From Bacteroidaceae bacterium (GTDB taxonomy: Bacteria > Bacteroidota > Bacteroidia > Bacteroidales > Bacteroidaceae), in the NCBI GenBank assembly GCA_024697785.1, contig JAILEU010000201.1:1-33157 (forward strand): a stretch of DNA of 33,157 nt, given 5' to 3'. The position numbers and the translations under genes were made by a program. Each line of letters opens with the position of its first letter. Positions within the stretch are counted from its first letter, which is position 1. Positions 682-20,844 of this stretch are shown piece by piece. The notes beneath the pieces were generated by a model. It was not told where the DNA came from, searched no databases, and was given only the letters and a program-made list of their open reading frames with translations.

Positions 682-2022
682 TCAGCGCAGGGCGGCCTTG
701 AACGTGTAGAGATATGGAACGGGAACACGCTCCACGGGCCGCTCGCGGTCGGTAGGGATGGTGGGAACGGGGTCGTCGGGCATCGCGACGGGACGACGGC
801 GGCGGAAGGGTGGCTGGTGGTCGGCCGGTGCAGCCATAACGACAAGAAACACCTTCGAGGCATCAGAACCGAGCTTGAACGACATCTTCGCCAGCTTTGA
901 CTTGGAAGAGAGCGTGTGCATAGGACTATAGACGGAATGCCCGTCGCGGTTCACCACGACGAAGCCGCAGCGGAAGCCACCCTGCTCGACGGGTACCGTG
1001 GTGCAGAAGGAGACGATAACCCTCATACCCTTTTCAGGCATAGCCAGCGGAATGACATTGAAACCATAGTTCTCAGGCACATTGGAGGCCTTAGGCGCAT
1101 ACCAGCCGTCGCCCAGCGTATCAAGCTCGGTGGACATCTGGCAAGCATAGGGACGAGTAAGACTCCAACAGCGGGGATAGTCAAGATTGACAATGTGGCA
1201 GACCGCATCGTACATCTCGTCGCAGAAGGCTGCCTGCGAAAGGTGGTAGAGTTGCTTGTAAGTGATGACGGGGTCGTCGCCACGCTTACCGGCCCGATAG
1301 AGGTCACTGATGGAGGAGAGCCCACGCTTCATGCCCCAGTACTCTATTATATAAGGAGAGCGGTAAATGTTCTCGAAGCTCAGATAGGCCTTATGGGTAT
1401 TCTTGCAGAAGGCATCCCAATGGTAGCGCTCGGACCCAATCCAGTTGGGGTTCACCTGCCAGAGCATCCACTGGCTTGTCATCTCGAAGAAACCGCTTCC
1501 GCCCCAGGCCTCGCCCTCGCCGTCGCACATAATTTGGCTTTGGAAGCAGTGTCCCAATTCGTGGGCGATGCAGTTGAGCGTCTTGTCCCGCAACCGATTG
1601 GGAGCCACCCAAAGGGCGCCGATGACGCCGTCGTAGTCGCCGCCATAGGCGGTGCCCTCGAGGCTATAGTTGATCATGACCATCATGCGATATTTGTCGC
1701 AAAGAGAACCTGCGTGGGCAAATTGGAGGGTGTTGTAGTAATAGTCGTAGAACGTCTCGAGGCGCTCGCAGAGGTTATCGAGGTCAACGTCCATCTTGTG
1801 TCCGTCAAGATCGGGCGGAGAGGAGAGGTCGTCGCCAAAGCCATCCTCCCAAAATACGACGAAGTTGTCCGTCAGGCGGCTGTGGGCATAGCACCAGCGA
1901 GAGGAAGGATTATTGAAATCGTTATCCTGCAAGTCCTTGGGGATGTATATCTCCTTACCGTCGGCAAAGCATAGAGCCGAAAACGAAAGGAGAAGAGCGG
2001 ATAAAGCAAACAGTCGTTTCAT
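682..2022 (-). CDS. Secreted putative zinc metallopeptidase, DUF6055-like
   Basis: A 446-residue protein with a type I signal peptide (residues 1-20, ending ALCFA). The core holds IAHELGHCFQ with the zincin motif HELGH at 154-158, and Glu180 in GGSGFFEMTSQW is a candidate third zinc ligand (gluzincin-like). The pattern NFVVFWEDG near residue 55, followed by a helical segment ending FYDYYYNTL and then DGVIGALWV, matches the neighbouring paralogue, and I place both in the family I know as DUF6055. A peptidase role is inferred from HExxH; no activity is known to me. It is the last gene of the leftward block, 33 bp after its paralogue. The C-terminal tail (about 45 residues, Arg/Pro-rich) is poorly conserved against that paralogue. 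Confidence 0.8.
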   Translation of the reverse strand: MKRLFALSALLLSFSALCFADGKEIYIPKDLQDNDFNNPSSRWCYAHSRLTDNFVVFWEDGFGDDLSSPPDLDGHKMDVDLDNLCERLETFYDYYYNTLQFAHAGSLCDKYRMMVMINYSLEGTAYGGDYDGVIGALWVAPNRLRDKTLNCIAHELGHCFQSQIMCDGEGEAWGGSGFFEMTSQWMLWQVNPNWIGSERYHWDAFCKNTHKAYLSFENIYRSPYIIEYWGMKRGLSSISDLYRAGKRGDDPVITYKQLYHLSQAAFCDEMYDAVCHIVNLDYPRCWSLTRPYACQMSTELDTLGDGWYAPKASNVPENYGFNVIPLAMPEKGMRVIVSFCTTVPVEQGGFRCGFVVVNRDGHSVYSPMHTLSSKSKLAKMSFKLGSDASKVFLVVMAAPADHQPPFRRRRPVAMPDDPVPTIPTDRERPVERVPVPYLYTFKAALR

Positions 2023-2029
2023 AGAAGGT

Positions 2030-2058
2030 GGGGGATTGGGGTTAGGGGCTAGGGGTTA
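2030..2058. repeat. TTAGGGG telomere-like array, G-quadruplex motif
   Basis: On the plus strand G-runs at 2030-2034, 2038-2041, 2045-2048 and 2052-2055 are separated by ATT, TTA and CTA. Four G-runs of at least four with 3-nt loops are a textbook intramolecular quadruplex motif. It fills the gap between the two DUF6055-like genes, and its last TTA is the reverse complement of the upstream gene's stop codon. The mRNA carries the C-rich strand. Confidence 0.8.
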
Positions 2059-3867
2059 GCGGCCACTGGGATTGGTGCCGTTGAACTGAACCTGCCAAGG
2101 CCATTTATTGTCGTCGGTGTCGGTGTCGGCCTTACTAGCTTCGGTGGGCCAAGGATGGCGTTCGTAGTTCTTGGGTGCGCCGCTGACGACAAACCACAGC
2201 TTGGCGGAGTTAGCGGGGACGTTGAAGGTAGCCGTTCCGCTGGCATCGGAGAAGATGTCGCCATAGGTCGTGCTGCCGTCTCTGTTGTAGGAGACGAAGC
2301 CGTATCGCCAGCCGGCGTTGTTGCGCGGTCCGCACTTGTATGTCGAACCCTGCATGGCGTAGAGTCCCTCGAACGAGGCCGTTACGGTCTTACCCGCCGC
2401 GCCGTTCAGCAGCATGGCGTTGAAGCCGGTGCTCTCGGGAGCCTTGTTGTCGGCAATGCGCCACCAGCCGTCGACCTTCGAGAAGTTGGTGACGGCGACG
2501 TCGCCGACAGCGTTTTTGCCATAGCTGCGTACCTCGCCCAGGTCGTAGGTGACGATGTGGGCTGCATAGCGCCAGATGTCGTCGTTGAAGGCCGCATTGT
2601 CCATGCCCGTCAACCGCATATAGGTCTCACACGGATCCTCGGGGTAGCACGACTCGCGCCATAGCTTGCCGATGAAGTCGATGCCATACTTATCGACCCA
2701 GTACCACTGGATGAAATAGTTGGCATAGCGGGGACGCTCGTGGAGGACGTGGAGATTAGCAGAGGCGGTGAACTCGCCATGCCATCCGGCAAAGGCCTGA
2801 GGCTTGTAGTCCTCGGACGCCGAGAAGCGCTGGAGGCTCTGCCACTGGGCACACTGTTCCCACCAGCCGCACCCGCCGCTGCCGTTTGCGCCGAAGCCAT
2901 AGCGCCAGCCGGGTCCCTGTGTGCCGCTGGCGCTGGGGCGCTGGCTCTCGGGCATGCCCTTCTGCTCGAGATAGTCGCAGAACACCATGTACTGGAACGA
3001 GTGGCCAATCTCGTGAGCAATGGTGCTGCCCACGGGCTTGCAGGTGCTGGGGTTGACCCACAGCGCACCGATGACGTTGTCGTAGCCGCTGCCCGTCGCC
3101 AGCCATTCGCTCTGGTAGAGGATATAGATCTCCATCTTATAGCGGTCGAGGACGGACTTGCCCTTACCGGTTTCGGCAAACCGGAGCGTACCGATGTTCA
3201 TGTCGTAGAACAGTTCAGCCTTCCGCAGCAGGTCGTCGATATCGACCGCCATGCTGCTGACCTTACAGGTGGTTGGCGACGTGTCGGCCGTGCCTTTGCG
3301 CGAGCCGAAGAGGCCGTACTCGCCGTACTGCCTGTCCCAGAAGACCACGAAGTGCTCGCTCTGCTTGCTGCGGCACCAGCTCCACTTGCTGTCGCTGCGC
3401 AGCATATCGAAGGTGAACTCGCGGGGTTTGTAGTACTTGTCGAAGTCGGGCACGTCGGCCTCGGTGAGCACAAGGGGCGCCACGCCCTGGGTAACAGAGA
3501 CGCGTTTCTTGGATTTGCCCGAGCGGACGGTGACGACAGCCGAACGGATCTCGGGCGTATTGTTAGCAGCGGCATAGAGGTAAATCTTATAGGCCTGCAG
3601 CGAGTCGCCCCAGGTCTGGCTGACAGAGAGCCAGTCTTTAGCCTCGTCAGGGATATCGACATACCAGAGGTAGGAGGACCTAATCTTTAGCACCACGCGT
3701 CCCGAGTCGGCGGGAGCCTCCCACGAATTGCGGTTGATGGACATCTCGACTCCCGTACGATTGGCGTCGTAGTTGGCCATGGGGTCGGGTTCGTCGGGTG
3801 TACAAGATACGAAACAAGCGCCCGCCACGAGCGGCAGGACAAGCAGGGAGAATAAAAACTTCTTCAT
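2056..3867 (-). CDS. BACON-like + DUF6055-like lipoprotein, putative metallopeptidase
   Basis: A 603-residue lipoprotein. I start it at the ATG complementary to 3865-3867 because that gives a normal lipoprotein signal peptide with Cys22 (CFVSC); a longer frame upstream adds only a non-secretory leader. Residues about 35-128 look like a BACON domain (beta-rich, ending VSVTQG). The remainder parallels the downstream gene: EHFVVFWDRQ, DNVIGALWV and the zincin motif HEIGH at 285-289 in TIAHEIGHSFQ, with Glu337 in GWWEQCAQWQ as a likely third ligand. The gap between HExxH and that Glu is about 47 residues, against about 21 in the paralogue, so the two probably differ in substrate. It is presumably surface-anchored and would act alongside the SusC/SusD pair. 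Proteolytic function is inferred. Confidence 0.8.
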   Translation of the reverse strand: MKKFLFSLLVLPLVAGACFVSCTPDEPDPMANYDANRTGVEMSINRNSWEAPADSGRVVLKIRSSYLWYVDIPDEAKDWLSVSQTWGDSLQAYKIYLYAAANNTPEIRSAVVTVRSGKSKKRVSVTQGVAPLVLTEADVPDFDKYYKPREFTFDMLRSDSKWSWCRSKQSEHFVVFWDRQYGEYGLFGSRKGTADTSPTTCKVSSMAVDIDDLLRKAELFYDMNIGTLRFAETGKGKSVLDRYKMEIYILYQSEWLATGSGYDNVIGALWVNPSTCKPVGSTIAHEIGHSFQYMVFCDYLEQKGMPESQRPSASGTQGPGWRYGFGANGSGGCGWWEQCAQWQSLQRFSASEDYKPQAFAGWHGEFTASANLHVLHERPRYANYFIQWYWVDKYGIDFIGKLWRESCYPEDPCETYMRLTGMDNAAFNDDIWRYAAHIVTYDLGEVRSYGKNAVGDVAVTNFSKVDGWWRIADNKAPESTGFNAMLLNGAAGKTVTASFEGLYAMQGSTYKCGPRNNAGWRYGFVSYNRDGSTTYGDIFSDASGTATFNVPANSAKLWFVVSGAPKNYERHPWPTEASKADTDTDDNKWPWQVQFNGTNPSGR

Positions 3868-3920
3868 TTCTTTTCTTTGGATTGGTTTTTTGGGGCTACA
3901 GGATTCGATTTCCTTTTTTA

Positions 3921-3980
3921 TTCTTTGGAGCCTTAGACGGAATCGAACCATCTGTTCTACAGTCCACTGAAGGCAAAGAA
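3921..3980 (-). other. Structured element with a tRNA-like T-arm
   Basis: The ends pair (TTCTTTG with CAAAGAA, CCTT with AAGG, 3-nt bulge). On the minus strand the inside holds two possible small hairpins, CAGT-GG-ACTG or CTGT-AGA-ACAG, and GATGG-TTCGATT-CCGTC. The last matches a tRNA T-arm in stem length, 7-nt loop and the TTCGATT loop sequence, and is followed by TAAGGCTCCA. No D-arm or full anticodon arm can be built upstream, so this is not a working tRNA. It may be a tRNA 3' fragment or a leader structure for the DUF6055-like lipoprotein gene. Confidence 0.45.
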
Positions 3981-3982
3981 GC

Positions 3983-4018
3983 AGGGACGCCACACACGGA
4001 GGAAGGTATGGCGTCCCT
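3983..4018 (-). terminator. Hairpin after the surface lipoprotein gene
   Basis: AGGGACGCCA (3983-3992) and TGGCGTCCCT (4009-4018) are a perfect 10-bp inverted repeat with a 16-nt loop. It starts 14 bp past the stop codon of the gene ending at 4033. The T-run after it is poor, so it could be a partial terminator or an mRNA-stabilising 3' hairpin that sets the relative level of the downstream peptidase-like genes. Confidence 0.6.
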
Positions 4019-4032
4019 GAAGGGAGTGGGAT

Positions 4033-5835
4033 TTATTCCACACGGAGTGTCACCGTGCAGGTGATGTGCTGCAGCGTCTCGATGTTGGCCAGACGGACAA
4101 TGGTCGAGAAAGTGGTGGCAGAGGTGACGTTGTCGGGATGGATGCCGGTGCCGAGGTAAAAGTAGTTCTCGTCGGTGTTGAAGTAGCTCTCGATGAAGAA
4201 AGCGCCACCGTCGCCCCACGAGCCTACGGAACCGTCGTTCTTATACCAGAATCCGCCACGCTCGCCGTTGGCCGTGTACTCCATGCCGCCGTCCTTGTCG
4301 AAGAGTTTGAATGCGGTCTGGAAGTTTTCAGCGGTGATGCCGATGGCACTGAGGTCGACCTTCAGTTGCGGGCCGCTGTAGCCGTCGGCCACAGCCTGTG
4401 TGCCCTCAACGCTGATGGCAGCCACCTCGGTGGTGGCATAGCTCTTTGCTTCGTCAACGGTCATGTTGAACGTCAGCACAGCCTGCTTGTCGCCATTCAC
4501 AATGGCCAGTTTGACCGTCTGTGCATAGCCGCTCTCCTGCCAAAGTCCGCAGCCGAAATTATAGTCGCCACGATATTCGACGTAAGCGCAGAAGTCCTCA
4601 GAGCCCCAGTTGGTGACATTGCTCTGGCTACTGAACCAGTAGCCGTTGTTGGCTGTGTAGCCGCCGTCGTAGAGCGAGCCGTCAGCCTGAACGGCCTTGA
4701 TGGGGTACGTATCGCCGATGAGTGAGGCAGCCACGCTGTCCACGCCGAGGGCTGCAGCCAGAGCTGCCAGGTTCTTCTCGTTCAGGGTGTAGAGGGCCTC
4801 GCCTTCCTCGTAGGAAACGAGCACATTGAAGGCCAGAAAGTCGATGGTGGAAAGTGTAGCCGCCACCTTGACAACATAAGCCTTGCTGTTCTGAGGATTA
4901 ACGAAGGCGATGGCGCCCTTGCAGGTCTGGCCGCCGAGCGAGTCGTCGGGATAGTTACAGATGGCCCAGAAGCCGCCGTCGTGGTTGATGTCGATGCCGC
5001 AGCCGTCGCCATAGTTCATGACGTCGCCAGCCACACTGAACCAGAAGTTTGTCCTGGGGATGCCGAAGAACGTTCCGTCGGCGTTGACGCCATAGACCGT
5101 TGCATCGGTAGCGCTGATGCCGATGGCCCCCTTGATGGCATCGAAGTCAATCAGCTCTTCGATGCTGGTGGCAGCCCAAGCGCCGTCGTAGTCGGCAGCG
5201 AGGGCGATTTCCTGCGTGCCCACAACGTCGACCTTCACCTCAGGCAGTTTGTCTGTGACGTTGATGTTAAACTGCACGGCCACCGTGGTCTCGTCGTCGG
5301 CAAAAGCCTCGATGATGGTGTACTTCTCGCCACCCTTGACACGGTCAGGGAAGTTGCCAAGCGTAATCTGGAGGTTCTCATTGCTGACGAAGTATCCTTC
5401 GGTAAAGAAATAGGCATCGTCGCCCCATCCGCAGACGTCGCCCTGGGCGGTGAACCAGTGTCCCCAGCCATTGGTGGTGGAGACGGTCTCGTTCAGATAG
5501 CCTGTCGAGCCGTCGATGGCGCAGAAGCTGATGGAGTTGCCGACCTGAGCGCCGCCGTCAGCCACGTCATCGGTGCCGAGAGCCTTGATGAAGTCAGCCT
5601 CACTGTTCAGGCCAAAATGCTCCCAGATGTGCTTTCCGTCCTTGACGAAGTCGGCATAGTTGAGCGCTGTGCCATCGTAGCCATAGCCGGAATAGTAATC
5701 GACATTCACCTCGTAGAGGACGTCATAGGCTTTGTCATCGTCTTCGGGGATAACGATGGGTTCGGGTTCGGGTTTCTTACATGAGGCGACCACCACGACG
5801 AGCAGCGCCAACAGGGCATAAAAATACTTTTTCAT
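4033..5835 (-). CDS. Four-module surface lipoprotein in SusE/SGBP position, DUF4859-like
   Basis: A 600-residue lipoprotein (Cys19 after VVVVAS, followed by a Pro/Glu linker). It follows the susD-like gene, the usual place for a SusE/F-type surface glycan-binding protein. I see four repeats of about 132 residues. Each carries an aromatic-Gly motif: GWGHWFTAQGDVCGWG (123-138), NFWFSVAGDVMNYG (263-277), GYWFSSQSNVTNWG (398-411) and GFWYKNDGSVGSWG (528-541). The modules match what I know as DUF4859, found in Bacteroidetes surface proteins. Exposed Trp/Tyr clusters suggest ligand binding by stacking. The ligand is unknown. A role as the outer-surface receptor for the SusC/SusD importer is inferred from order and anchoring. 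Confidence 0.8.
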   Translation of the reverse strand: MKKYFYALLALLVVVVASCKKPEPEPIVIPEDDDKAYDVLYEVNVDYYSGYGYDGTALNYADFVKDGKHIWEHFGLNSEADFIKALGTDDVADGGAQVGNSISFCAIDGSTGYLNETVSTTNGWGHWFTAQGDVCGWGDDAYFFTEGYFVSNENLQITLGNFPDRVKGGEKYTIIEAFADDETTVAVQFNINVTDKLPEVKVDVVGTQEIALAADYDGAWAATSIEELIDFDAIKGAIGISATDATVYGVNADGTFFGIPRTNFWFSVAGDVMNYGDGCGIDINHDGGFWAICNYPDDSLGGQTCKGAIAFVNPQNSKAYVVKVAATLSTIDFLAFNVLVSYEEGEALYTLNEKNLAALAAALGVDSVAASLIGDTYPIKAVQADGSLYDGGYTANNGYWFSSQSNVTNWGSEDFCAYVEYRGDYNFGCGLWQESGYAQTVKLAIVNGDKQAVLTFNMTVDEAKSYATTEVAAISVEGTQAVADGYSGPQLKVDLSAIGITAENFQTAFKLFDKDGGMEYTANGERGGFWYKNDGSVGSWGDGGAFFIESYFNTDENYFYLGTGIHPDNVTSATTFSTIVRLANIETLQHITCTVTLRVE

Positions 5836-5885
5836 TGCTTTGTTGTTTGTTTTTTATGGGTTAATACGATTGATAATAAAAATTG

Positions 5886-5913
5886 GTTTAACGTTTAACG
5901 CTTAATGTTTAAC
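5886..5913. repeat. 7-bp tandem array, GTTTAAC x4
   Basis: Four contiguous heptamers: GTTTAAC (5886-5892), GTTTAAC, GCTTAAT, GTTTAAC (to 5913). GTTTAAC carries a palindromic core, so the array can fold locally. It is in the 220-bp gap between the susD-like gene and the surface lipoprotein gene. Confidence 0.75.
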
Positions 5914-5932
5914 GACCATGCGGCAGGACATC

Positions 5933-6049
5933 TTTAGACTTTCAGACTTTCTTTTTTGACTTTTAGACTACCAGATGATTGTTTCAAGGACTGCTTCGTT
6001 GCTGCACTATTATCTGCCAGTCTGTTAGTCTGATAGTCTGTCAGTCTGT
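5933..6049. repeat. Inverted 8-bp arrays, AGACT-type and AGTCTG-type
   Basis: The left arm has TTTAGACT and TTCAGACT at 5933-5948 and a further TTAGACT at about 5962-5968. The right arm is four contiguous octamers CAGTCTGT, TAGTCTGA, TAGTCTGT, CAGTCTGT at 6018-6049. The arms are roughly complementary and could form a hairpin around the middle of the gap. The array ends 6 bp from the susD-like stop, so it may reduce read-through from the importer genes to downstream genes. Confidence 0.7.
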
Positions 6050-6055
6050 TTCCTA

Positions 6056-7945
6056 TTAATTAAATCCGGGGGTCTGGACGAGGTTCTTGTTGCCGTTCAT
6101 GTACTCGATGTAGATGGGACCGGCGTTGTAATGGTTATCCTTCACGTCCTGAACGCGATCCTTGCAGAACCACGACTTGCCGTTCCAGACGTTCTGTCCG
6201 GTGGAGGTCATCTTGAAGCGGATGAGGTCCTGCCGACGGTGGTGTTCGAAGACGAACTCCCAAGCCAATTCGTCGAGCAGTCCGCCGAACTCGATGTCGG
6301 CGCCGCCACGATAGGGAGCATCCTCAGCGGGACCTTCGTCGTAGTGCTGGGCATCCCACGTGTAGGAGGTATATTTAGCAGGGTCGTAGCCGTCGGCAAC
6401 GTGGTACTCGCTGTGGCCGTAGTTATAGCTGCTGCCCCCCTTGAGGTCGGCGAGTGTGCGCGTAGCTGCTGTGGGATTGGCGGGAACGTTGAAGGTCTTA
6501 GTGTTGCGGCCCTTAAAGGCACGGGCACGAACCATGTTGACAAAGTTGACGGCGTCAGCCTCGCTGTAGGTGCCCTTGCCGCCCAGACGAAGGGCGCACT
6601 CAGCAGCCATCAGGTAGGCGTCGGCCAGACGGAAGAAGTTGACGTCGTCGCCCCACGTGCCGTCGGTGCCGGGGACAATCTCAAGCTTGACGTTGCGGTA
6701 GCCTTCCAGCATATAGACGCCAGGGTTGTCGACGCTGTGGATATTCTTCGTATAGAAGACGTTGACGGTTCCCTTCAAGTCAGCCTCACCCGTTGTGAGC
6801 GGGTCGCCCGACTGTGCGCCGCCCTCGTCGGTGTAGGCATACTGCTGGTCGTGTGCCCAGGTGTCGTCGAAACGGGTGTCGTGAGGGTGATAGGTGTCGA
6901 TAAACTGGGGGATGCCGGCGCCGCCGTTCCAGCAGGCGTTGGTGAATCCGTAGGCGGCAGCACCAGCGGTGATGAGGCTCTCGCAAATGGTGTAGTTGTG
7001 CGAGGCGTAGGTCTTGTCGAGAGGGATAGCGAAGATGCACTCGGTGCACCCTCGGAGGTCTGCACGGAAGTTGTCCTTGAAGTTCGCCTCGAGGGTGTAG
7101 CCGCCATTGTCAATGACATCCTTGAGCACCTGCTCGCACTTCCTGTACCATTCGTCGCTGATGCGGTTGCGGTAGGTGTCGCCCGTCTGAACGCCTTCGC
7201 GAAGCTGGTCGGCACTAACGATGTTGTCGAACCAGGCATTATGGTTGAGGTACATCTTGGCGAGAATCATGTCGGCCACGAAGCGGTTGGGGTGTCCGAA
7301 GACATGCTGCGTGCCGAGGTCGTCGCGGACGGCAAGGAGTTCCTGCTCCACCCAGTCGAACACCTTGTCGGGGTTAGCCTGAGCAGGGAGGAAGCCTGCC
7401 TCCTGCTCTTCGTCGGCGCCTGTCAGCAGGGGTATCCAGCGGAAGTTGTCGAAGAGGATGTAGTAGCTGAGTGCCCTGAGGCAGCGCACCTTGGCGAGGG
7501 TGAGGCTCTGGCCCTCCGTCAGCGTGCCGCCCTGCTTCTCACGGACGGTTTCCATAGCGCGGCAGAACTGGTTGGCATACGTGATGGCCACGTAGTTGTA
7601 GTACCAGTCGGTAGAGTGCATGTTGGCATTTTCGCTCGTCACCTCGTGCTTGTGGTAGCTGATGTAGTAGTCGCCCCAGCCGATACCGATCTTCGAGGGC
7701 ATTACGTAGAGGTCGCAGGCTTCCTCGGTGAGATCCATCAGGCCGTAGTAGCCCCAGTACATAAAGCGGATGTTGGAATAGACCGATGCCGAGAGGGCCT
7801 CGAGGGTGCTCTCCTCTGTCAGGTCCACATTCTCTTCGGTCAAGCTGCTGTAAACGGTCTCGCTCAGGTCGGTGCAGGAGGCGCCGACGATGGCGAAGAG
7901 TGCCGTCAGGGCAGCGGTTGCGGCGTGTTTGAGTTGCTTTTTCAT
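6056..7945 (-). CDS. susD-like: SusD/RagB-like outer-membrane nutrient-binding lipoprotein
   Basis: A 629-residue lipoprotein with Cys24 in IVGASC. The protein forms the surface lid of a SusC-type TonB-dependent transporter. Typical SusD features are the N-terminal TDLSETVYSSLT segment, the helical TPR-like first half (for example YVAITYANQFCRAMETV and KVRCLRALSYYILFDNF), and the C-terminal FRLADAYLMAAECALRLGG, NMVRARAF and ELAWEFVFEHHRRQDLIRF signatures. The start is 16 bp after the susC-like stop, so the pair is certainly cotranscribed. Length is at the long end of the family. The substrate cannot be read from the sequence; the neighbouring peptidase-like genes make protein or glycopeptide an open possibility. 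Confidence 0.93.
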   Translation of the reverse strand: MKKQLKHAATAALTALFAIVGASCTDLSETVYSSLTEENVDLTEESTLEALSASVYSNIRFMYWGYYGLMDLTEEACDLYVMPSKIGIGWGDYYISYHKHEVTSENANMHSTDWYYNYVAITYANQFCRAMETVREKQGGTLTEGQSLTLAKVRCLRALSYYILFDNFRWIPLLTGADEEQEAGFLPAQANPDKVFDWVEQELLAVRDDLGTQHVFGHPNRFVADMILAKMYLNHNAWFDNIVSADQLREGVQTGDTYRNRISDEWYRKCEQVLKDVIDNGGYTLEANFKDNFRADLRGCTECIFAIPLDKTYASHNYTICESLITAGAAAYGFTNACWNGGAGIPQFIDTYHPHDTRFDDTWAHDQQYAYTDEGGAQSGDPLTTGEADLKGTVNVFYTKNIHSVDNPGVYMLEGYRNVKLEIVPGTDGTWGDDVNFFRLADAYLMAAECALRLGGKGTYSEADAVNFVNMVRARAFKGRNTKTFNVPANPTAATRTLADLKGGSSYNYGHSEYHVADGYDPAKYTSYTWDAQHYDEGPAEDAPYRGGADIEFGGLLDELAWEFVFEHHRRQDLIRFKMTSTGQNVWNGKSWFCKDRVQDVKDNHYNAGPIYIEYMNGNKNLVQTPGFN

Positions 7946-7961
7946 AGTGCTTTCAGGGGGG

Positions 7962-10900
7962 TTAGAAGGTTAATGAAACGCCGGCGGTGAAGCTGCGGAT
8001 GGTGGGATACTTGTCGCGCTCGTCGAGTCCTGACGAGAAGGGGTCACCGTTGCCGAGCTCAGGGTCGAGGCCGGTGTAGCCGGTGAGACAAAGGATGTTC
8101 TCGCCTGAGACGTAGCCACGTACGCTCTGGAGGTACTTGCGGGCATTGCCCTTGACGTCGTAGGTGTAGCCGAGAGTGACATTGTCGATCTTTACATAGT
8201 CGCCCCGCTCCAGGTAGGCGCTGACAACGCATTGCTGCTGAGCGGTAGAGAGCTTGACTACCTCGCCGGTCTTCTGTCCTGTCTTGACGTCGACGACGGG
8301 TTTGCCGACGGCTGCCACGTAGAGGCGGTTGTAGGCGATGGAGTTGTTCTCGTAGAAGGCGCGCTGGCTGTTGAAGATGTAGAAGCCGAGCTGGCTGCTG
8401 AGCTGTACGCCGAGGTCGAAGCCGCGGTAACGGAACGTGTTGCCCCAGTTAAGGTATACCTTGGGCAGGCCGTTTCCGCAGTACTGGCGGTATTCGTCGC
8501 TGTTGTACTGGGTGGAATAGACGACGTAGCGGTCGGTCTCGTTGCCGTCCTTGTCGAGCCACTTGTCGCCCTGCTGGGTGACGGCGTTGGGATTCTCGAT
8601 GACCCATTTGCCCTTGTCGTTGACGCCGACGGACTTCAGCATCCAGAAGTTGCCGAAGGGCTTGCCTTCCTCGATGCGGTGTGTGCTGACGCTGATTGGG
8701 TCGCCGACACCGCCCCAGTTGAGGTAGCTGTCGGTCTCGTAGAGCTCGTTGGAGAGGCTGACGAGGAGGCTGGAGTTATGAGAGGCGGTGAAGGTGGTGT
8801 TCCAGTCGAAGTACTTGGTGCGGATGGGGTTAGCCTCGATGAGGAGCTCGACGCCCATGTTCTGGAACTTGGCTGCGTTGGCCGTCGTGGAGGTATAGAT
8901 GTTGGGCGGGACGGGCACCGTGTAGTAGTAGAGAAGGTCGTTGGTGACCTTGCGGTAGGCATCGATGGTGACGTTCAGGCGGTCTTTCAGGAAGCCCATG
9001 TCGAGTCCGACGTTGAACTCCTCGGCGGTTTCCCACTGGAGCTTCGGGTTGGGGTTCTGGGTGGTCTTGAGGCCGGTGACCCACTGTCCGCTGGTGTTGA
9101 GGTAGCGACCGTAGGAGGTGTCGTAGTCGTACATGGTGAGCGAGCCGTAGCTGCTGCCGGGGATGTTGCCAGTCTTACCGTAGCCGATGCGCAGCTTCAT
9201 GTTGGAGATGGCGCTGACGCTCTCCATGAACTCCTCGTTGCTGACGGTCCAGCCGAAGGAGGCCGAGGGGAAGTTAGCCCACTTGCGGTCGGCGCCGAAC
9301 TTGCTGCTGCCCTCGTGGCGGAGGGAGAGCAGGATGTTGTAGCGGTCGTCGTAGCCGTAGCTGACACGTCCGAAGAAGCCGATGAGCTTGTCGTCGCTCT
9401 TGCTGCTGTCCATGCCTCCGCGAGGATTCTCCTTGTCCTTCAGGTAGGTGCCGGCTGAGAGGCTGTTATAGCGGTAGACCTCGGTGGGGAAGTTGCCGTT
9501 GCTGGCCCAGAAGCTGCTATAGACGTTGTAGTTATAGCTGTAGCCGACGATGGCGTCGATGCGATGGGCGCCGAAGGTGTTCTTGTATTCGCTGGTGAGC
9601 TCGAGGTTGTTCGAGACGTAGTCGCTTTGCGACTTCGAGGCGGAGCCGTTGGCGGGATCGGTGCTGCCGGGGGTGTTCTGCGGCGCCAGGGTGTAGTAGC
9701 GCGAGGTGTAGTAGTTCTCGCCCACGCTCATGTAGCGATAGGTGCTGAGCATGAGGTTGGTGCGCCAACCCTGGACGGGCTCGAAGGTGATGTTGCCCGT
9801 CATCTTCGTGTCGTTCGAGCGCGTATCGCCGATCTGCTCACTGAGGATTTCGACGGGGTTATAGTACTGGAAGCGGTTGAACTCCTCGTTGTAGCCCAGC
9901 GAGGGGTCCTCCTGGCCGTCGGCATTGACGTTGTAGATGGGCGACGTGGGGTTGTGGATGACGGCCTGGCGATAGGCGTACGAGGGGTTGTTCTGCGGGT
10001 TCTTGCTGAAGCCGAGGTTGCCGTTGAGGTTGAACTTCAGGATGCCGTTCATAGCCTTCTGGGTGACGTCGAACTGCATGCGCATACGTTCGTTGCCGGT
10101 GTTCATCATCACGCCCTTCTCGTCGCGATAGCTGAAGCCAGCGGCATAGGCGGTGTTGGCCGAGCCGCCCTCGAGGGTGAGCGAGTGGTTCTGGGCGAGG
10201 CCCGTCTGCGTGACGGCGCCGAGCCAGTCGGTGGTGAAACCCTCGTCGCTGAAAGCGGTGGCCCCACGGATATTACGGATGTCATCAGCCGTCATGAAGT
10301 GGAGGTTATCGTAGAAATCAGAGGCGCTGACGTAGCCGGAGTAGGTGACCTTGGCGGTCTCGCCGAATTGTCCGCCCTTGGTGGTGATGAGGATGACGCC
10401 GTTGGCACCTCGTGTACCGTAGATAGCAGCAGCGGAGGCATCCTTCAGGACGTCAATGGAGGCGATGTTCTCAGGTGCCACTTCGGTGATGTCGCCAGGA
10501 ACGCCATCAACGAGCACCAGGGGATCGAGGCTACCGGTGAGGGTGGTGACACCACGCAGACGGATGGTGCTGGTGGCGTTGGGGTCGCCCGAACCCTTGG
10601 TGATGTTAAGGCCGGCCACCTTGCCCTTGACGAGCTCAGCAGCATCCTGGATGTTACCGATGTTGAAGTCTTCGGGCTTGACGCTCGCCACAGCGGACGT
10701 GATGTCGCCCTTCTTCATCGTACCGTAGCCGATGACCACGACGTCGGAGAGCAGCTTGCTGTCCTCCTCGAGGGTGATGCGGAGGTTGGTGCGGCCACCC
10801 AGAGCCACCTCCTGGGTGGCATAGCCGACATAGCTCACCACCAGCGTAGCCTGACTGCTCTTCACCTGAAGGGAGAAGGCACCGTTAATGTCGGTGATGA

Positions 10901-11054
10901 CGCCATTGGCAGGCGTACCCTTCTCAACCACGTTGGCACCGATGACTTCGTCGCCGTTCAGATCTACTACGGTTCCTCGAATGGTGGTCTGAGCATTTCC
11001 GACCAACCACGAGCCGAGCATCAGCGCAAGCGAGATAAAAATGCGTGCTTTCAT
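7962..11054 (-). CDS. susC-like: SusC-like TonB-dependent outer-membrane transporter
   Basis: A 1030-residue protein with a signal peptide ending VGNAQ (about 1-22). A carboxypeptidase-regulatory-like domain (about 23-100, TIRGTVVDLNGDEVIGANV to YVGYATQEV) is followed by the SusC linker VVVIGYGTMKKGDITSAV and the plug with SIDVLKDASAAAIYGTRGA. The beta-barrel runs to the C-terminal SFTAGVSLTF, ending in Phe as outer-membrane porins do. There is no N-terminal secretin/STN domain, so it does not look like a transducer that signals to an anti-sigma factor. Transcription starts from the promoter at 11160-11190, leaving a leader of about 100 nt that carries CCCCTAA repeats. It imports oligomers captured by the SusD-like partner into the periplasm using TonB energy. 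Confidence 0.95.
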   Translation of the reverse strand: MKARIFISLALMLGSWLVGNAQTTIRGTVVDLNGDEVIGANVVEKGTPANGVITDINGAFSLQVKSSQATLVVSYVGYATQEVALGGRTNLRITLEEDSKLLSDVVVIGYGTMKKGDITSAVASVKPEDFNIGNIQDAAELVKGKVAGLNITKGSGDPNATSTIRLRGVTTLTGSLDPLVLVDGVPGDITEVAPENIASIDVLKDASAAAIYGTRGANGVILITTKGGQFGETAKVTYSGYVSASDFYDNLHFMTADDIRNIRGATAFSDEGFTTDWLGAVTQTGLAQNHSLTLEGGSANTAYAAGFSYRDEKGVMMNTGNERMRMQFDVTQKAMNGILKFNLNGNLGFSKNPQNNPSYAYRQAVIHNPTSPIYNVNADGQEDPSLGYNEEFNRFQYYNPVEILSEQIGDTRSNDTKMTGNITFEPVQGWRTNLMLSTYRYMSVGENYYTSRYYTLAPQNTPGSTDPANGSASKSQSDYVSNNLELTSEYKNTFGAHRIDAIVGYSYNYNVYSSFWASNGNFPTEVYRYNSLSAGTYLKDKENPRGGMDSSKSDDKLIGFFGRVSYGYDDRYNILLSLRHEGSSKFGADRKWANFPSASFGWTVSNEEFMESVSAISNMKLRIGYGKTGNIPGSSYGSLTMYDYDTSYGRYLNTSGQWVTGLKTTQNPNPKLQWETAEEFNVGLDMGFLKDRLNVTIDAYRKVTNDLLYYYTVPVPPNIYTSTTANAAKFQNMGVELLIEANPIRTKYFDWNTTFTASHNSSLLVSLSNELYETDSYLNWGGVGDPISVSTHRIEEGKPFGNFWMLKSVGVNDKGKWVIENPNAVTQQGDKWLDKDGNETDRYVVYSTQYNSDEYRQYCGNGLPKVYLNWGNTFRYRGFDLGVQLSSQLGFYIFNSQRAFYENNSIAYNRLYVAAVGKPVVDVKTGQKTGEVVKLSTAQQQCVVSAYLERGDYVKIDNVTLGYTYDVKGNARKYLQSVRGYVSGENILCLTGYTGLDPELGNGDPFSSGLDERDKYPTIRSFTAGVSLTF

Positions 11055-11378: not shown

Positions 11379-14300
11379 TTATCGGCGGATGACCTTTTGA
11401 CCGTTCTGGATGTAGATGCCTCGCGTGGGATGGAGGACACGACGTCCCTGAAGATCGTAGTAGGGAGCCTCGTCCTGCTCAAGGGCGCGAGGTGCGACAC
11501 CTTCGGCAATGATCTGCATCCAGCTGACGCTCTTGCCCTTGTCGCCGTTGAAGCCTTCAGCATCGATGATGTCGGCCGTCTGGACGGTGAGGACATAATA
11601 GCCCGTGGCCGCGGTGAGGTCGCCGAAGCGGAGCTCAAACAGGTCGCCCTCGCCTGCGACAGGAAGGATGGCCATCGTGGAGACGTCGAGGCGCTTGCCC
11701 TCGTGGTTCAGGAGCACGTCGTCAGCGGTAAACGTCTGCTCCATGATGGGTTTGTTGAAGCGGACGGTGAGGGAGGTGACGGGCGTGACGGTCCATGAGT
11801 CGGCATCGGGCACAGTGAAGATGTCATCGACAGCAAGCCAAACGGCGGGCATGGGTTCGAAGGTGATGCGATAGACCTCGCCTGCCGCTCCGGTCAGTCC
11901 GGCAAAGTGGAGACGGTTCTCGGGCACGGGCTTCTTGGCATCGTTGAAGACGTACTTCGTCAGCCAGCAGCATCGGAGTGGGATGTCGGCGCCGTCGCTC
12001 AGACGGGTGATGGACGTCACCTTGCCGTGACCGTCGGTCGGGTCGGCCATCCAGCCATATATCCAATCGGTGGCGGCAGCAGGAACGTAGATGTCGCAGG
12101 TGTTGTCGCCCATCAGCCCTGTGGTGGTCATCTCGGTCGTGGTCGTGACGGGAGCCGTGGTGCCGTCGGCGAAGTAGATGACGTCGGGATAGGCGTTGTA
12201 ATCGATGTTGTCATTGGCAAGGAAGGCAGCCCGCTCCGTGCCGTCGGCATCGCGGACGGCGATGCTGTGGATGAGCTCGTGGACGTGGATGGTGTCGAGA
12301 AGCGAGAGGTCGGGATTGCCGTAGCTGGTGACGTGGGTGGCTTCAATCTCGTAGTCGATGAAGTGGCCGTAGATAGAGCTGCGCATCCACCACTGGGCGT
12401 AGGCCGACGAGTGGGGGGCGATGTCGCCAAACTCGGTGGCGACGCTCTGGCCGAGGGCAAGAACCTTGTCGCCGCCGTTGAGCTGCGAGCCGATCATGTC
12501 GTAGTTGATGAGCAGGCCTTTCTCGTTCTCCACAATCTCGGGTTGGTTGGTGACCATGCGGAGGTCGGTGGCCGTGCCGTTGCCTTTATTTAAAAGGATG
12601 AGTGAGAACTCGGCATCCTCGGCAGGCTCCACTTCCTCCGTGAAGGGGTCGTCGCTCATGACGTCGCGCTGGACGAAGTAGATCATCTCCAGGACGGGCG
12701 AGGGTTTGACGGTGATATCCACGGGCACCAGTTCGCGTGTCACCTCGTAGCCGTTGAAGGGGTCGATGTAGGTCAAGCTTCCGCCGATGGTATAGACGAC
12801 GGGCTCGTCGGGAGCGGCATAGCGCGTGGGGATGAACTTGATGGTTGCCACGCCCGTCTGCTGGGCATCGAGAGTCCATTTACCGTCGAAGGCCAGCGCG
12901 CCGCTGAAGCCGTCCAGCGTCTCCATGTGCATCTCCATCTCGTGCGAGGTGGCGACGTTACCGTTCGAATCGGCGACGGTAAGGTTGAGGCGGACGTCCT
13001 TCATAGGCTCGTCAGAATGTCCGTTGAAGACGGTAAGGGTGCCGAGGAAGGCCTGACGGGTGAAGGTCATGGTCTGGCTAATCTGAATCTTAACCGTGGC
13101 GCAGACGGCTCCGTCTTCCTGGTCAAGGGCCTGTTCGACCAGAGGTACCTCGGTCTTCCACATGTCGTCTGTCGAGACGTAGCCCTCCTCGCGTGCCTTT
13201 GCCTCACATGCCTCGATGATGGCGTACTGGGCTTCGATAAGCTCCATATCCACCTGATTGTCCGGATTAGTTCCCTTCATACGTTCGATGAGGGCATCGA
13301 AAGCCTCGTCGCTGACGCCAGCCGGTTTCAGGTGGCGCAGGTCGTCGGCAGAGAAAGACTGATGGTCGGCAGGAACAGCCTGGAAAAGGCGCGAGAGATC
13401 CTCCGCATTCACCCCATCCCAGGCATCCGGGTCGCCCACCAGCTCGTTGTAGATGGCATGGAACGCCTCCATCTCCTCCACGGCGACAAGCGCTTTTTTC
13501 TGGAAAGCCTGAATGTAACGAGGCAGTTTCTCAACACGACGTGCAGGAGCTTTCTCGCCGTCCTCGCCGCCATCCGCATCCTTGTAGCAATCGACAGAGG
13601 CAAAGCCCTTGATGCAGCCGATTGTGTTGAGGACAGCACCGCCTATCGGACCTGCCACGCCGCCGCCGATGACCAGTATCCAGTCAACGGCATCCTTTGC
13701 CGTAGCCGCGCCGACAGCCGTGCCCACGTAGGGGATGTAGCCTACCAGACAGAGTCCGGCAGCCTCGGCGAACAGCTTCACGCACTCCTTGCAGCCCTTG
13801 AAGACACGTGTGACGCCCACGGGGGAATCTCCCCAGGTGCTTCCACCGCCGTAGCCTCCGCCGCCGTAATAACCTCCGCCGCCTAAGCCGCCAAAGCCTT
13901 CCGCAGCGCAGACACGCTGGTAGATGATTTTGGCCGAGTTGGCCCAGAACCAGTCATCGCCACAAGGCCACTTCCAGATGACCTTCTGATCCAGATAGCA
14001 GGACATACCGCCATCGTCAGCACGGCGCTGGGGGCTATACTCAGGCCATGTGCCTGTACGGCGATAGCGCATGGACGCTTCGGCATCTTCGCCCGGATAG
14101 AGGCGTGTGACGCGGACGGGGATAACCACCGACTGCTGGGCCTCCAGGCTGTCGGGCAGATCGACCAGCGGCGTGAAGCTGAAGTATTCGTCGTTGGGGA
14201 ATTCCAACTCAAGACCCTGGGCACGGATGAGACCGCGGTTGATGAGTACCGTGTTATAGACAAGGCTCTGGCCGAGCTCCATCGCATCAAGAGGCTGTTC

Positions 14301-17300
14301 CTCCACCTGCATATCCACTACGGGTTGTGGCACGTAGGTCTCGAAGGTCATGGTGGTGACAATCTTGTACTCGTCCGTTTCGCCTACCTCGACCACGTCG
14401 AAGTCGATGGTGATGGCCTGGAAGCAGAGGTTGACGGTAAGATTAGTCGTTCGCGAGGGGTCGATGCTGACGTTGTTCTGGTAGCCGCTGTGCTTGTCGG
14501 CCTTGACGGTAATGGTGTACCATCCGGCGGGGAGGTCGAAGGCGGCCTTGCCGTCGGCAGCTGTGGTGCCCTCGGCTATGACGGCTCCGCTGATGGGATG
14601 GGTCACGGTAACCGTAGCTCCGCTGACGTGGGGGGCCTCGGCCGTGTAGTAGGTGTTTTCGTCGCAGACATCGACCACCAGGCGGCCCTGCACGTCGCTG
14701 ACGGGCTCTACGCTATAGGGTAGCGTGAAGCCTTGTCCGTTTTCGACATTGACGGCTATGCGGCCCGTGAGAGGCACGTTGAGTTGCATCTTGTCGTCGG
14801 GCGTGAAGCGAAGCTGTATGTCAGCCTTCTCGCCAGGCTTGAGCGACGGCATCGAGACGGGTGTCAGGGCGCTCATCCACCCCACGTCGGGCAGGGAGAG
14901 CGTCACCTCGCCCGTTGCGGCAGCTCCCTCGTTGGTGATGCTGAAGATGTAGTCAGTAAAGCCGCCCATCAGCATCGTGGTGTTGATTTCGTTGATGTTG
15001 GCCGTCAGGAGGGCTGTCGGGTTGACGTTGTAGTACCAGACGGTCAGCTCCTTCGAGGGGCCTTCGGCTGTGGCGATGCGCAGGCGCAGCTCTTCGTACT
15101 GGTCGCCGCTGGTGGGTGCCTTGGCCTTGACGGCGAGGTGGAGGACGGCCTTCTCGTCGGCCTCGAAGGTCGAGACGCCCGTGAGCGTCACGTCGAGATT
15201 GGCGTTCTTCGACACCTGCGTGAAGGTGACGCCCGTGAGGGGTATGACGCCCGGGTTGCGGACGGTGATGTCGGCCTGATAGGTCGAATCGACCACGAAG
15301 GTGCGCCAGCCGTTCCAGGCGTCGTCGGCCTTCCACTGCGGACCTTCGGTCTGGAAGCCGCGGATGTCGAACGTGCAGGCCGCGAAGGCTTCGTCGCCGG
15401 GCCAGCTCTGGGGATAGACGGCGGCCGCCATGAAGTGGCCGGTCCACGACTCGTAGGTCGCCCAGGGATAGCTAAAGGCTCCGTTCTCGTCGGTGACGAC
15501 GTTGAAGGTCTGGTCGCCGCCTTCGGCGTTGCGGACGATGAGCTTCAGCTGGCTGAAGGCTTTCTTCGCGCCGGCAATCTGGCCGGTGAAGCGGACGGTC
15601 TCGCCCGCGTCGTAGAGGGTCTTGTCGGTGGCGAGGGTGGCCGTGTAGGGGGGCACTACCTTTATAATATAGGAGTCAGCGGCGGAGTTGTTGTCGTAGC
15701 GGATCTCCTTGAAGGCCCGCGAGCCGTTCACCCAGGCCTGGGCGGTGACCTCGGTGGCGTAGTCGGTGACCACCAGCGTGGGCGTCAGCCTGAGCGACTG
15801 CCCGACAGGAATCTCCTGACGGGTGCGATATTCCCAGTCGCCATCCTTCCAGGGGCCGCTGATGTGGACGTCTAGACCGGCGGGCATGGGCTCGTTGCCG
15901 GTGTTGGCAATGACGACGACGGCCTCGACGCTATCCTTCGCCTGCACCTCGGTGGGGCTGATGGTGAACTCGCTGATGGAGACGTCTGGGCCTGTGTTGG
16001 GGTCGTACTGGCTGTCGGGCACGTTGCCGATGCAGAAGAGGACGCTCAGCTGCTGCTTCTCGCCTGCGGCGATGGTGCGCCCCCGCCAGCACCAGCCCAT
16101 GCCGCTGTCGTACTGGCCGTTCTCGATGAAGAGGCCGTTGATTTCGGCGATACTCTCGTGGAAGAGGCCAAGGCCGAGGTCGGCATTCTGCCAGCCATAG
16201 TCCTGATGGACATACATGGCGATGTAGTTCTTTCCGTTGAGGTTGAGGGCATTGACGGCCTCCTCGTTGATGTCGCGGAAGTCGAGCCAGTCCATCCACG
16301 GGTCGCCTGAGTAGGCCAGCACGCCGTTGAACCAGACTTGGCAGCCATCGTCGTGATAGAGGCGCATGCGCAGGAACTTCAGGTCGTCACGGCTGACGTT
16401 GTTGAGGGTGACTTCCTTGCGCATCCAGATGTGCTCGGTGTTCCACTGGCCTCTTCCGTTATTGTCCGGATTGAAGGGGGTGAATCCCTGCTCCCAGCCG
16501 CTGTCGTCGAAGGACGGAGTGTTCCAGTTGTCGGCAGGCTGCGTGGTGGTATAGCGCCATTTGTCGCCGCCCTGATCGGCATCCTTGACGAAGGTGACGT
16601 ATTCATCTATGCCGTTGACGGCTCCATGCCAGAGGCCTTCCTGGAGGCCGAGGGCGATGTCGAGCGTCTGCCCGCCCCAGGTGTTGTAGGAGTAGGCGGC
16701 GATGGTGTTGGTGCCGTGCAGATTGAGGGCGGCACGGGCAGCATCGCTGATTTCGTAGTCGTAGTATTCGGAGTAGTACTCAGGATTGCTGAAGGCAAGG
16801 ACGCCGTTGATATAGACCTGATTGGCACCGGCGGAGTTGTGGAATATCTTCAGGCGGAGGAACTGTGCCTGCTCGGCGGTGATGTCGAGGTTGAAGGTAC
16901 GGCGGAGCCAGATCTTATGGTCGTCACCATCCCAGAGGGTGCGCACATGGTCACGTCCTTCCGAGCCGAAGCCGGCAGCGCCCTCGTTCCAGCCGCTGTC
17001 GTTGAAGGCTGGGGTGAACCAGTTGGCGGCGGGCTCGGTGAAGGTGTATCGCCACATCTCCGTGACGTCCTCGGCCTCGGGAGCGATGATGGTCTCCGTG
17101 AAGTCGTTGGGATACCAGCGGGGGCTGGTGTAGTTGCCGGCCAGAGCCATTCCGCTGGTGTTCAGCCCGCAGGCGCCGAACCAGTAGTCATCGACGTCGC
17201 TCACGCCCGAGCGCCCCTTGAAGAGGAACTGCAGGGTAGCCGCCTCGTCGGGATTGGTGCTGTTGGCCATCTCCAGGCCGAAGGGCTTGCCATTCTTGTC

Positions 17301-17903: not shown

Positions 17904-17933
17904 AGGGATATGTGTGTTGGTTTTTTTACGATG

Positions 17934-20839: not shown

Positions 20840-20844
20840 CCCCC

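What the first reader, a model, noticed from the sequence alone, without database searches (positions are those of the whole stretch)
682..11054. SusC/SusD locus with two HExxH proteins and no glycoside hydrolase
The operon susC-like, susD-like, DUF4859-like lipoprotein, DUF6055-like lipoprotein, DUF6055-like secreted protein has full uptake machinery, but the only candidate catalytic proteins are two zincin-motif proteins. That suggests a protein or glycopeptide utilisation locus rather than a polysaccharide one, a type rarely described. The family assignments come from memory of DUF6055 and DUF4859; the proteolytic role is inferred from HELGH/HEIGH plus a downstream Glu.
Basis: partly seen in the sequence, partly recalled or inferred. 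Interest (0 to 1): 0.72.

Follow-up and report, generated by a model that had tools for sequence, protein, structure and literature searches.

The report
Putative plant-extensin utilisation locus
A gut-type Bacteroidales bacterium carries a nutrient-uptake gene cluster that pairs two probable protein-cutting enzymes with sugar-removing enzymes next door, and the best reading is that it feeds on extensin, a sugar-coated structural protein of plant cell walls.

Summary
The operon is real: SusC, SusD, a triple-DUF4859 lipoprotein and two DUF6055 proteins. HExxH and a downstream Glu are invariant in 26 of 26 aligned DUF6055 proteins; 25 of 26 remotely match the Svx/AvrXca peptidase model. Svx cleaves plant extensins (PMC13164431). 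'No glycoside hydrolase' is true only of the operon as drawn: a divergent GH97-GH127 pair (18854-23462) belongs to the same locus, since G211, of another family, has the same divergent layout plus GH43. In 80 named DUF6055 loci, GH127, GH97, DUF4859 and CotH are commoner than in 40 other SusD loci; GH43 and DPPIV are not significantly so. The closest GH127 homologues occur in 12 genomes, 10 of them DUF6055-positive. In G106, hydroxyproline dehydratase lies beside SusCD, GH97, DPPIV and GH127. The glycosidases fit extensin's alpha-Gal-Ser and alpha-Araf-(beta-Araf)3-Hyp. Best reading: a hydroxyproline-rich-glycoprotein (extensin) utilisation locus. Arabinogalactan-protein is the main rival. Nothing was tested biochemically.

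The parts
682..2022 (-). DUF6055a: secreted 446-aa predicted gluzincin peptidase (HELGH at codons 1549-1563, third-ligand Glu 1483-1485)
2056..3867 (-). DUF6055b: BACON-DUF6055 lipoprotein, second predicted gluzincin (HEIGH 3001-3015, Glu 2857-2859); the open frame runs to 3993
4033..5835 (-). Three-DUF4859 lipoprotein, modelled as tandem beta-sandwich domains (moderate confidence); probable surface glycan/glycopeptide-binding protein (inferred)
6056..7945 (-). SusD-like outer-membrane lipoprotein
7962..11054 (-). SusC/RagA TonB-dependent transporter
11379..17936 (-). 2185-aa secreted multi-domain protein (CarboxypepD_reg, MG2, Big_5; NEW3 and HYDIN Ig-like below cut-off); membership in the locus uncertain; lies where relative G211 has a second GH127
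18854..20839 (+). GH97 of the retaining alpha-galactosidase type
20958..23462 (+). GH127 beta-L-arabinofuranosidase-like lipoprotein (open frame from 20715; likely start 20958)

Best explanation
The window holds most of a locus for eating hydroxyproline-rich glycoproteins of plant cell walls, most likely extensins. Proposed working: (1) the DUF4859 lipoprotein and SusD hold the glycoprotein at the cell surface (inferred); (2) the lipoprotein DUF6055b, an Svx/M60-like zinc gluzincin, cuts the glycosylated backbone outside the cell (motif shown, fold predicted for its partner DUF6055a, activity inferred); (3) SusC/SusD import the glycopeptides (inferred from family); (4) in the periplasm the short DUF6055a cuts again, GH97 removes alpha-galactose from Ser, and GH127 (with GH43 and a second GH127 in relatives) removes the Hyp-linked arabinose chain (families shown, specificity and location inferred); (5) proline-specific exopeptidases finish the peptide, and the genome has hydroxyproline dehydratase HypD for the freed hydroxyproline (genes shown, use inferred).
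For: H/E/H/E invariant in 26 of 26 aligned DUF6055 proteins. Spacing in the window is HExxH-X21-E and X47-E; Svx has X22 (PMC9266454, passages). 25 of 26 match the Svx/AvrXca model at E<=0.01, best 1.4e-20. Best Foldseek PDB hit is ZmpB, the M60 O-glycopeptidase also reported as closest to Svx; many further hits are carbohydrate-binding beta-sandwiches, which I take to match the beta-rich C-terminal half (aligned ranges are not printed). Recurrent gene order SusC-SusD-DUF4859-DUF6055-CotH-GH43-GH127-DPPIV, with GH97 near by in some loci. Named examples: Bacteroides mediterraneensis L080 and B. ihuae L083. Same divergent layout as the window in G211. 80 named DUF6055 loci against 40 other SusD loci of DUF6055-positive genomes: GH127 22 vs 1 (p 4e-4), GH97 20 vs 1 (p 0.001), DUF4859 18 vs 0 (p 3e-4), CotH 16 vs 0 (p 9e-4). 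GH127 genes within 10 kb of DUF6055: 12 of 90 vs 0.93 expected; GH97 6 of 69 vs 0.54. Of 12 genomes with the closest GH127 homologues (>1100 bits), 10 have DUF6055, vs 11 of the other 283. GH97 scores 655 bits to a retaining alpha-galactosidase, 174 to the best alpha-glucosidase. HypE-like/HypD beside SusC-SusD-GH97-DPPIV-GH127-M64 in G106 and beside DPPIV-GH43-GH127 in G032; 3 of 117 GH127 places, in these two loci, lie within 20 kb of a HypD against about 0.74 expected. HypD in the window's own genome, with an Xaa-Pro-aminopeptidase-like gene beside it. Extensin glycans are alpha-Araf-(beta-Araf)3 on Hyp and alpha-Gal on Ser (PMC13164431, results section).
Against: The window proteins score 53 and 34 bits against the Svx cut-off of 625, and their matches end at Svx profile positions 263 and 448 of 601, so the C-terminal Svx domain needed for extensin cleavage (PMC13164431) is not matched. 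Svx sugar-site residues W136/G137 have no conserved counterpart. Foldseek TM-score to ZmpB is only 0.32, rmsd 15. The closest solved GH127 is 6ex6, which I recall to be BT3674; BT3674 belongs to a B. thetaiotaomicron arabinogalactan locus (PMC3243724, PMC10850190 passages). Only 8 of 25 and 32 of 80 DUF6055 loci have any of GH127/GH97/GH43 in the fetched stretch. In one search, GH43 (5 of 80 vs 0 of 40, p 0.13) and DPPIV (7 of 80 vs 1 of 40, p 0.19) are not significantly enriched in the named set; nor are GH97 (p 0.15) and DPPIV (p 0.33) in the 25 unnamed loci, whose proteins also served to build the search models. HypD/DUF6055 co-occurrence is weak (12 of 21 vs 89 of 274, p 0.022). The window lacks GH43, a second GH127 and a DPPIV; its genome's DPPIV homologue is on other contigs and no close GH43 relative was found (best 133 bits, 40% over about 300 residues). 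GH2 and GH92 genes lie further along the window and extensin does not call for them.
Confidence: 0.6

Rival explanations
1. The locus targets arabinogalactan-proteins or a pectic arabinan/arabinogalactan side chain, and the DUF6055 peptidases only trim the protein core.
For: BT3674, a GH127 of a B. thetaiotaomicron arabinogalactan PUL, helps degrade larch arabinogalactan (PMC10850190 passage; PMC3243724 table). The window GH127 hits 6ex6 with 952 bits, which I recall to be BT3674. Arabinogalactan-proteins also carry hydroxyproline. A GH2 beta-galactosidase-like gene lies 4 kb beyond the GH127 in the window.
Against: Among 66 proteins of 20 DUF6055- or GH127-centred loci that my models did not label, no glycoside-hydrolase or lyase family occurs in two or more members at E<=1e-10 (25 of 68 families printed, so single occurrences are not excluded, and proteins labelled GH43 were not sorted by subfamily). 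GH2 is not enriched beside DUF6055 (1 of 80 vs 3 of 40). The adjacent GH97 is alpha-galactosidase-like, which fits Ser-alpha-Gal.
Confidence: 0.2
2. A mucin or general-protein utilisation locus, one form of the first reader's idea.
For: Gluzincin motif and weak ZmpB fold match; M60 peptidases recognise GalNAc on glycoproteins such as mucin (PMC9266454 passage).
Against: Neighbouring enzymes are arabinofuranosidase-type and an alpha-galactosidase type. Svx itself did not degrade gastric mucin (PMC13164431, results section). At least 18 of 80 record titles name a ruminant host.
Confidence: 0.08
3. DUF6055 proteins are not peptidases: the HExxH site serves another hydrolase or a binding function.
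For: No Pfam peptidase family is hit convincingly by the 26 members at E<=1 (best Reprolysin_5, E 0.0013); no convincing solved relative by sequence (one hit, E 0.48).
Against: Full gluzincin signature invariant; remote similarity to Svx, in which changing the HExxH Glu or the third-ligand Glu lowers activity 3.1- and 3.5-fold and EDTA abolishes it (PMC9266454 passages); a fungal DUF6055 protein is assigned to peptidase family M106 (PMC11241649 passage).
Confidence: 0.08
4. The SusCD-DUF6055 operon and the GH97-GH127 pair are unrelated neighbours.
For: In the window they are divergent, 7.8 kb apart, with a 2185-aa gene between; 17 of 25 and 48 of 80 DUF6055 loci show none of GH127/GH97/GH43 in the fetched stretch.
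Against: Same divergent arrangement in G211; single-strand runs with both in L080 and L083; co-occurrence in 10 of 12 genomes.
Confidence: 0.04

Closest known systems
Svx/AvrXca peptidases of Pectobacterium, Dickeya, Xanthomonas
   Same: Remote sequence similarity over the peptidase domain; HExxH with a downstream Glu; signal peptide; ZmpB is the closest solved fold in both cases (PMC9266454).
   Different: The window proteins are far below the curated cut-off; the Svx C-terminal acyltransferase-like domain is not matched, and BACON, DUF4859 or a CBM-like part is found instead; the genes sit with a SusCD transporter.
HypAA/HypBA1/HypBA2 system of Bifidobacterium longum and Xanthomonas euvesicatoria
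   Same: GH43 and GH127 arabinofuranosidases acting on hydroxyproline-linked arabinose (PMC6085000 abstract); both families recur in the DUF6055 loci.
   Different: GH121 was not searched for; a second GH127 is present in relatives; GH97, SusCD and peptidases are added.
Arabinogalactan PUL BT3674-87 of B. thetaiotaomicron
   Same: SusCD locus with a GH127 (PMC3243724, PMC10850190 passages).
   Different: DUF6055, DUF4859, CotH and, in some loci, proline-specific peptidases here; no other glycosidase family recurs among the unlabelled proteins. The BT3674-87 genes were not compared directly.
M60-type O-glycopeptidases (ZmpB and relatives)
   Same: Gluzincin motif; best fold match.
   Different: No M60 family among the 25 of 26 Pfam families printed for the 26 members; substrate expected to be plant.

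Membership tests
DUF6055 (PF19527) | Score above Pfam gathering cut-off (27 bits) | tested here: met
   419 and 432 bits
Gluzincin metallopeptidases | HExxH plus downstream Glu third ligand | tested here: met
   Invariant in 26 of 26 aligned DUF6055 proteins; spacing X19-X47, wider than the X8-X28 given in PMC9266454 in part of them, the longer window protein included
Gluzincin metallopeptidases | Zinc-dependent proteolysis and zinc-site geometry | not testable with these tools
   Model of the 446-aa protein has mean pLDDT 88 but coordinates are not given; no assay
Svx/AvrXca (NF040510) | Curated cut-off of 625 bits | tested here: not met
   53 and 34 bits
Svx/AvrXca (NF040510) | C-terminal acyltransferase-like domain | tested here: not met
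   Best stretches of the two window proteins reach only profile positions 263 and 448 of 601
Svx/AvrXca (NF040510) | Predicted sugar-site residues W136, G137, N171 | tested here: inconclusive
   W136/G137 places not conserved; N171 place is Gln in 23 and Asn in 3 of 26
M60 peptidases (PF13402) | Pfam match | tested here: not met
   Not among the 25 printed of 26 families hit by 26 members at E<=1
Bacteroidota SusCD utilisation locus | SusC/SusD pair with surface lipoprotein and enzymes | tested here: met
Retaining GH97 alpha-galactosidase | Closest to alpha-galactosidase structures, with the Asp that is changed in entry 5e1q | tested here: met
   655 vs 174 bits; Asp406 aligned; that this Asp is the nucleophile is recalled
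GH127 beta-L-arabinofuranosidase | Cys motifs of the zinc-thiolate site | tested here: met
   CETCA and CACCP aligned to solved GH127; role of these Cys recalled
GH127 beta-L-arabinofuranosidase | Activity on hydroxyproline-linked arabinose | not testable with these tools
   needs assay; GH127 of other specificity exist (BT1003, PMC10850190 passage)
Extensin utilisation system | Growth on and cleavage of extensin | not testable with these tools
   needs bench work

The most novel reading that the evidence does not exclude
Gut Bacteroidales carry a dedicated, complete pathway for a plant structural glycoprotein: a surface glycopeptidase, SusCD import of hydroxyproline glycopeptides (not oligosaccharides), removal of alpha-galactose and beta-arabinose in the periplasm, proline-specific peptidases, and hydroxyproline dehydratase. 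Carbon and nitrogen of extensin would both be used, and DUF6055 and DUF4859 would gain a function.
Probability: 0.35. Interest if true: 0.85.

Novelty: new variant of a known kind. Interest (0 to 1): 0.7.

Why it matters
It would turn two domains of unknown function into a testable hypothesis. It names a substrate, extensin, for which I saw no described SusCD locus in the listings of the searches made (open-licence papers only, lists capped), and it ties gut use of plant cell-wall protein to hydroxyproline metabolism. Extensins strengthen plant cell walls (PMC9266454), so such enzymes could affect how rumen and human gut bacteria open plant tissue.

Tried and rejected
HypD linkage as decisive proof: rejected. 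Two clear clusters exist (G106, G032), giving 3 of 117 GH127 places within 20 kb of a HypD against about 0.74 expected (p 0.039, two independent loci). Of 20 HypD neighbourhoods fetched, one (L221) had GH127 or DPPIV, three an aminopeptidase-P-like gene and two an M64-like gene.

DUF4859 structure search: the model (mean pLDDT 75, pTM 0.47) matched only generic Ig-like and cadherin-like arrays with TM-scores below 0.25; no specific function follows.

Profile search of solved structures with 26 DUF6055 proteins: one hit, E 0.48, not used.

Weak PF19527 hits (E above 1e-12) were not counted as DUF6055 in the distance test. Three of them (G233, G014, G052) are over the cut-off and are counted among the 21 genomes.

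Rows dropped and biases: I left out the 13 weakest of 103 GH127 rows and the 24 weakest of 93 GH97 rows. The 40 control SusD loci are not random: they are the first (best-scoring) SusD per contig in the cut list, from 13 of the 18 genomes, minus two within 20 kb of DUF6055. The models were built from the window and some of the 25 unnamed loci, so that set is partly circular; the 80 named loci are not, except that L038 and L083 are the same locus. The 80 were chosen by similarity to the window's short DUF6055 protein. The 1100-bit line was drawn after seeing a gap in the list. Fisher and Poisson values are not corrected for relatedness, and clustering of sugar-enzyme genes inflates the Poisson values. 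The lipoprotein pattern was crude: 20 of 44 long and 11 of 79 short DUF6055 proteins matched.

Full report
What is there. The window is one whole contig, C178 of genome G000. On the minus strand lie SusC (7962-11054), SusD (6056-7945), a lipoprotein with three DUF4859 stretches (4033-5835), a BACON-DUF6055 lipoprotein (open frame to 3993, likely start 3867) and a shorter secreted DUF6055 protein (682-2022).

Upstream of SusC is a 2185-aa secreted protein. After it comes a divergent pair on the plus strand, GH97 (18854-20839) and GH127 (open frame 20715-23462), then an LRR protein, an esterase-like protein, GH2 and GH92. The GH97 scores 655 bits against a solved retaining alpha-galactosidase and 174 against the best alpha-glucosidase; the Asp that is changed in entry 5e1q is present. 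The GH127 has the CETCA and CACCP motifs of solved members; its best hit, 6ex6, scores 952 bits, and 3wkw (recalled as Bifidobacterium HypBA1) 339.

Are the DUF6055 proteins peptidases? In 26 aligned proteins the residues H154, E155, H158, E180, Y220 and D250 are invariant. The gap from HExxH to Glu is 21 residues in one window protein and 47 in the other, 19 to 47 overall. Svx of Pectobacterium is a gluzincin with X22: EDTA stops it, and changing either Glu lowers activity 3.1- and 3.5-fold (PMC9266454, passages read). The Svx model is matched by 25 of 26 members, best E 1.4e-20, but the two window proteins score far below its cut-off. The 446-aa protein models well (mean pLDDT 88). Its best solved match is ZmpB, an M60 O-glycopeptidase, E 2.7e-4 but TM-score 0.32 and rmsd 15; many further matches are carbohydrate-binding modules, which I assign to the beta-rich C-terminal half because aligned ranges are not printed. 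ZmpB is also the closest fold reported for Svx (PMC9266454). A fungal DUF6055 protein has been filed in peptidase family M106 (PMC11241649, one passage). I put peptidase activity at about 0.85.

Neighbourhood in relatives. In a draw of 295 genomes of the order, 21 have DUF6055 over the cut-off. I fetched 25 DUF6055 loci from them, 15 far regions of the same contigs, and 80 named loci from the genome collection. The named hits include Bacteroides cellulosilyticus, B. timonensis, B. oleiciplenus, B. ihuae, B. mediterraneensis and B. reticulotermitis, many Prevotella and unclassified Bacteroidales; at least 18 of 80 titles name a ruminant host. A recurring order is SusC-SusD-DUF4859-DUF6055-CotH-GH43-GH127-DPPIV, in whole or part, with a second GH127 upstream of SusC and GH97 near by in some loci. 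L080 (B. mediterraneensis) has GH127b-SusC-SusD-DUF4859-DUF6055-DUF6055-aminopeptidase P-EamA-GH97-GH43-GH127 on one strand. L083 (B. ihuae) has GH127b-SusC-SusD-DUF6055-GH97-GH43-GH127-DPPIV. Two or more DUF6055 frames occur in 37 of 105 loci (one of them, L054, is a gene in two pieces), usually one long and one short, as in the window.

Same layout as the window. In G211, of another family, the minus strand reads DUF6055-CotH-DUF6055-DUF4859-SusD-SusC-GH127b, and the plus strand, starting beside GH127b, reads GH97-GH43-GH127. The window has the same two divergent operons, without CotH and GH43, and with the 2185-aa gene in the place of GH127b. I therefore take GH97-GH127 to be part of the locus.

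Controls. Forty other SusD loci, the best-scoring SusD per contig from 13 of the 18 DUF6055-positive genomes, gave GH127 in 1, GH97 in 1, DUF4859 in 0, CotH in 0, GH43 in 0 and DPPIV in 1. The 80 named DUF6055 loci gave 22, 20, 18, 16, 5 and 7: the first four differences are significant (p 4e-4, 0.001, 3e-4, 9e-4), GH43 (0.13) and DPPIV (0.19) are not. The 25 unnamed loci, some of which supplied the models, gave 6, 3, 5, 5, 5 and 2, with GH97 (0.15) and DPPIV (0.33) not significant. None of the 15 far regions had any of these. GH127 genes within 10 kb of DUF6055 were 12 of 90 against 0.93 expected, GH97 6 of 69 against 0.54; within 20 kb 16 against 1.7 and 9 against 1.0. The closest GH127 homologues (>1100 bits) sit in 12 of 295 genomes; 10 of these have DUF6055, against 11 of the other 283 (p 2e-11; p 2e-10 without the window's own genome). 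Genomes whose best GH127 is in the next band (600-970 bits) give 6 of 46. These p values ignore relatedness.

Which substrate? Extensin carries alpha-galactose on serine and alpha-Araf-(1-3)-beta-Araf-(1-2)-beta-Araf-(1-2)-beta-Araf on hydroxyproline (PMC13164431, abstract and results section read). GH127 HypBA1 removes Ara from Hyp, and a GH43 removes the alpha-1,3-Ara (PMC6085000, abstract). GH43, GH127 and GH97 of these loci fit those linkages. Proline-specific peptidases join in some loci: a DPPIV-like S9 in 2 of 25 and 7 of 80 (1 of 40 controls), and an M24 aminopeptidase P in 0 of 25 and 3 of 80 (0 of 40 controls; confirmed by Pfam only in L080). The one control locus that carried GH97 and GH127 (L166/L172 in G106) begins with a HypE-like activase (below its own cut-off) and HypD, which matches trans-4-hydroxy-L-proline dehydratase with 1268 bits against a cut-off of 1100. 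Its SusCD pair is only distantly like the window's. It also has DPPIV and, after GH127, an M64 peptidase, as if the peptidase type were exchangeable. In G032, HypE-like/HypD is divergent to DPPIV-GH43-GH127; this GH43 is not of the close type. The window's genome has HypD (1141 bits) with an aminopeptidase-P-like gene beside it and a DPPIV homologue, cut by a contig end, 64% identical to that of B. ihuae.

Limits. HypD is common in the order (101 of 295 over the cut-off). Its link with DUF6055 is weak (12 of 21 vs 89 of 274, p 0.022) and with GH127 rests on two loci (3 of 117 places, 0.74 expected). Many DUF6055 loci show none of the three glycosidase families in the fetched stretch (17 of 25 and 48 of 80), so DUF6055 may have wider uses. 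The best-matching GH127 structure may come from an arabinogalactan system, which keeps arabinogalactan-protein as the main rival. Svx needs a C-terminal domain for extensin cleavage that the window's DUF6055 proteins do not match; the CBM-like, BACON and DUF4859 domains may do that job, which is a guess.

Novelty. I searched the paper library for DUF6055 (one paper, the fungal degradome above), DUF4859 (none), extensin with Bacteroides, GH127 and PUL terms, a mixed set, hydroxyproline dehydratase with extensin and plant-glycoprotein PUL terms. In the rows listed I saw no described extensin locus of this kind. A genome paper on Latescibacteria proposed extensin use from a GH127 (PMC4454575, passages), and plant N-glycan breakdown by gut Bacteroides is described (PMC9522356, listing only). 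Subscription papers are largely missing from this library, so novelty is likely, not sure.

Noticed in passing
window 11379-17936: 2185-aa secreted protein with CarboxypepD_reg, MG2 and Big_5 stretches, sitting where relative G211 has a second GH127; function unknown.
   Followed up: partly
window 23978-25558: LRR protein with 63-base tandem repeats, matching among others the LRR domain model of EndoS.
   Followed up: no
window 27578-33154: GH2 beta-galactosidase-like and GH92 genes on opposite strands; GH92 includes alpha-mannosidases (recalled), so possibly a second, N-glycan-related set.
   Followed up: no
window 406-525: Imperfect 21-base tandem repeats near the contig end, outside the genes described.
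   Followed up: no
window 18154-18435: Stretch between the divergent operons with several short tandem repeats.
   Followed up: no
L166 190-19757 (G106:C2): HypE-like activase, HypD, SusC, SusD, GH97, DPPIV, GH127, M64: a hydroxyproline-linked variant without DUF6055 in the fetched stretch.
   Followed up: partly
L221 (G032:C45): GH127-GH43-DPPIV divergent to HypE-like/HypD.
   Followed up: partly
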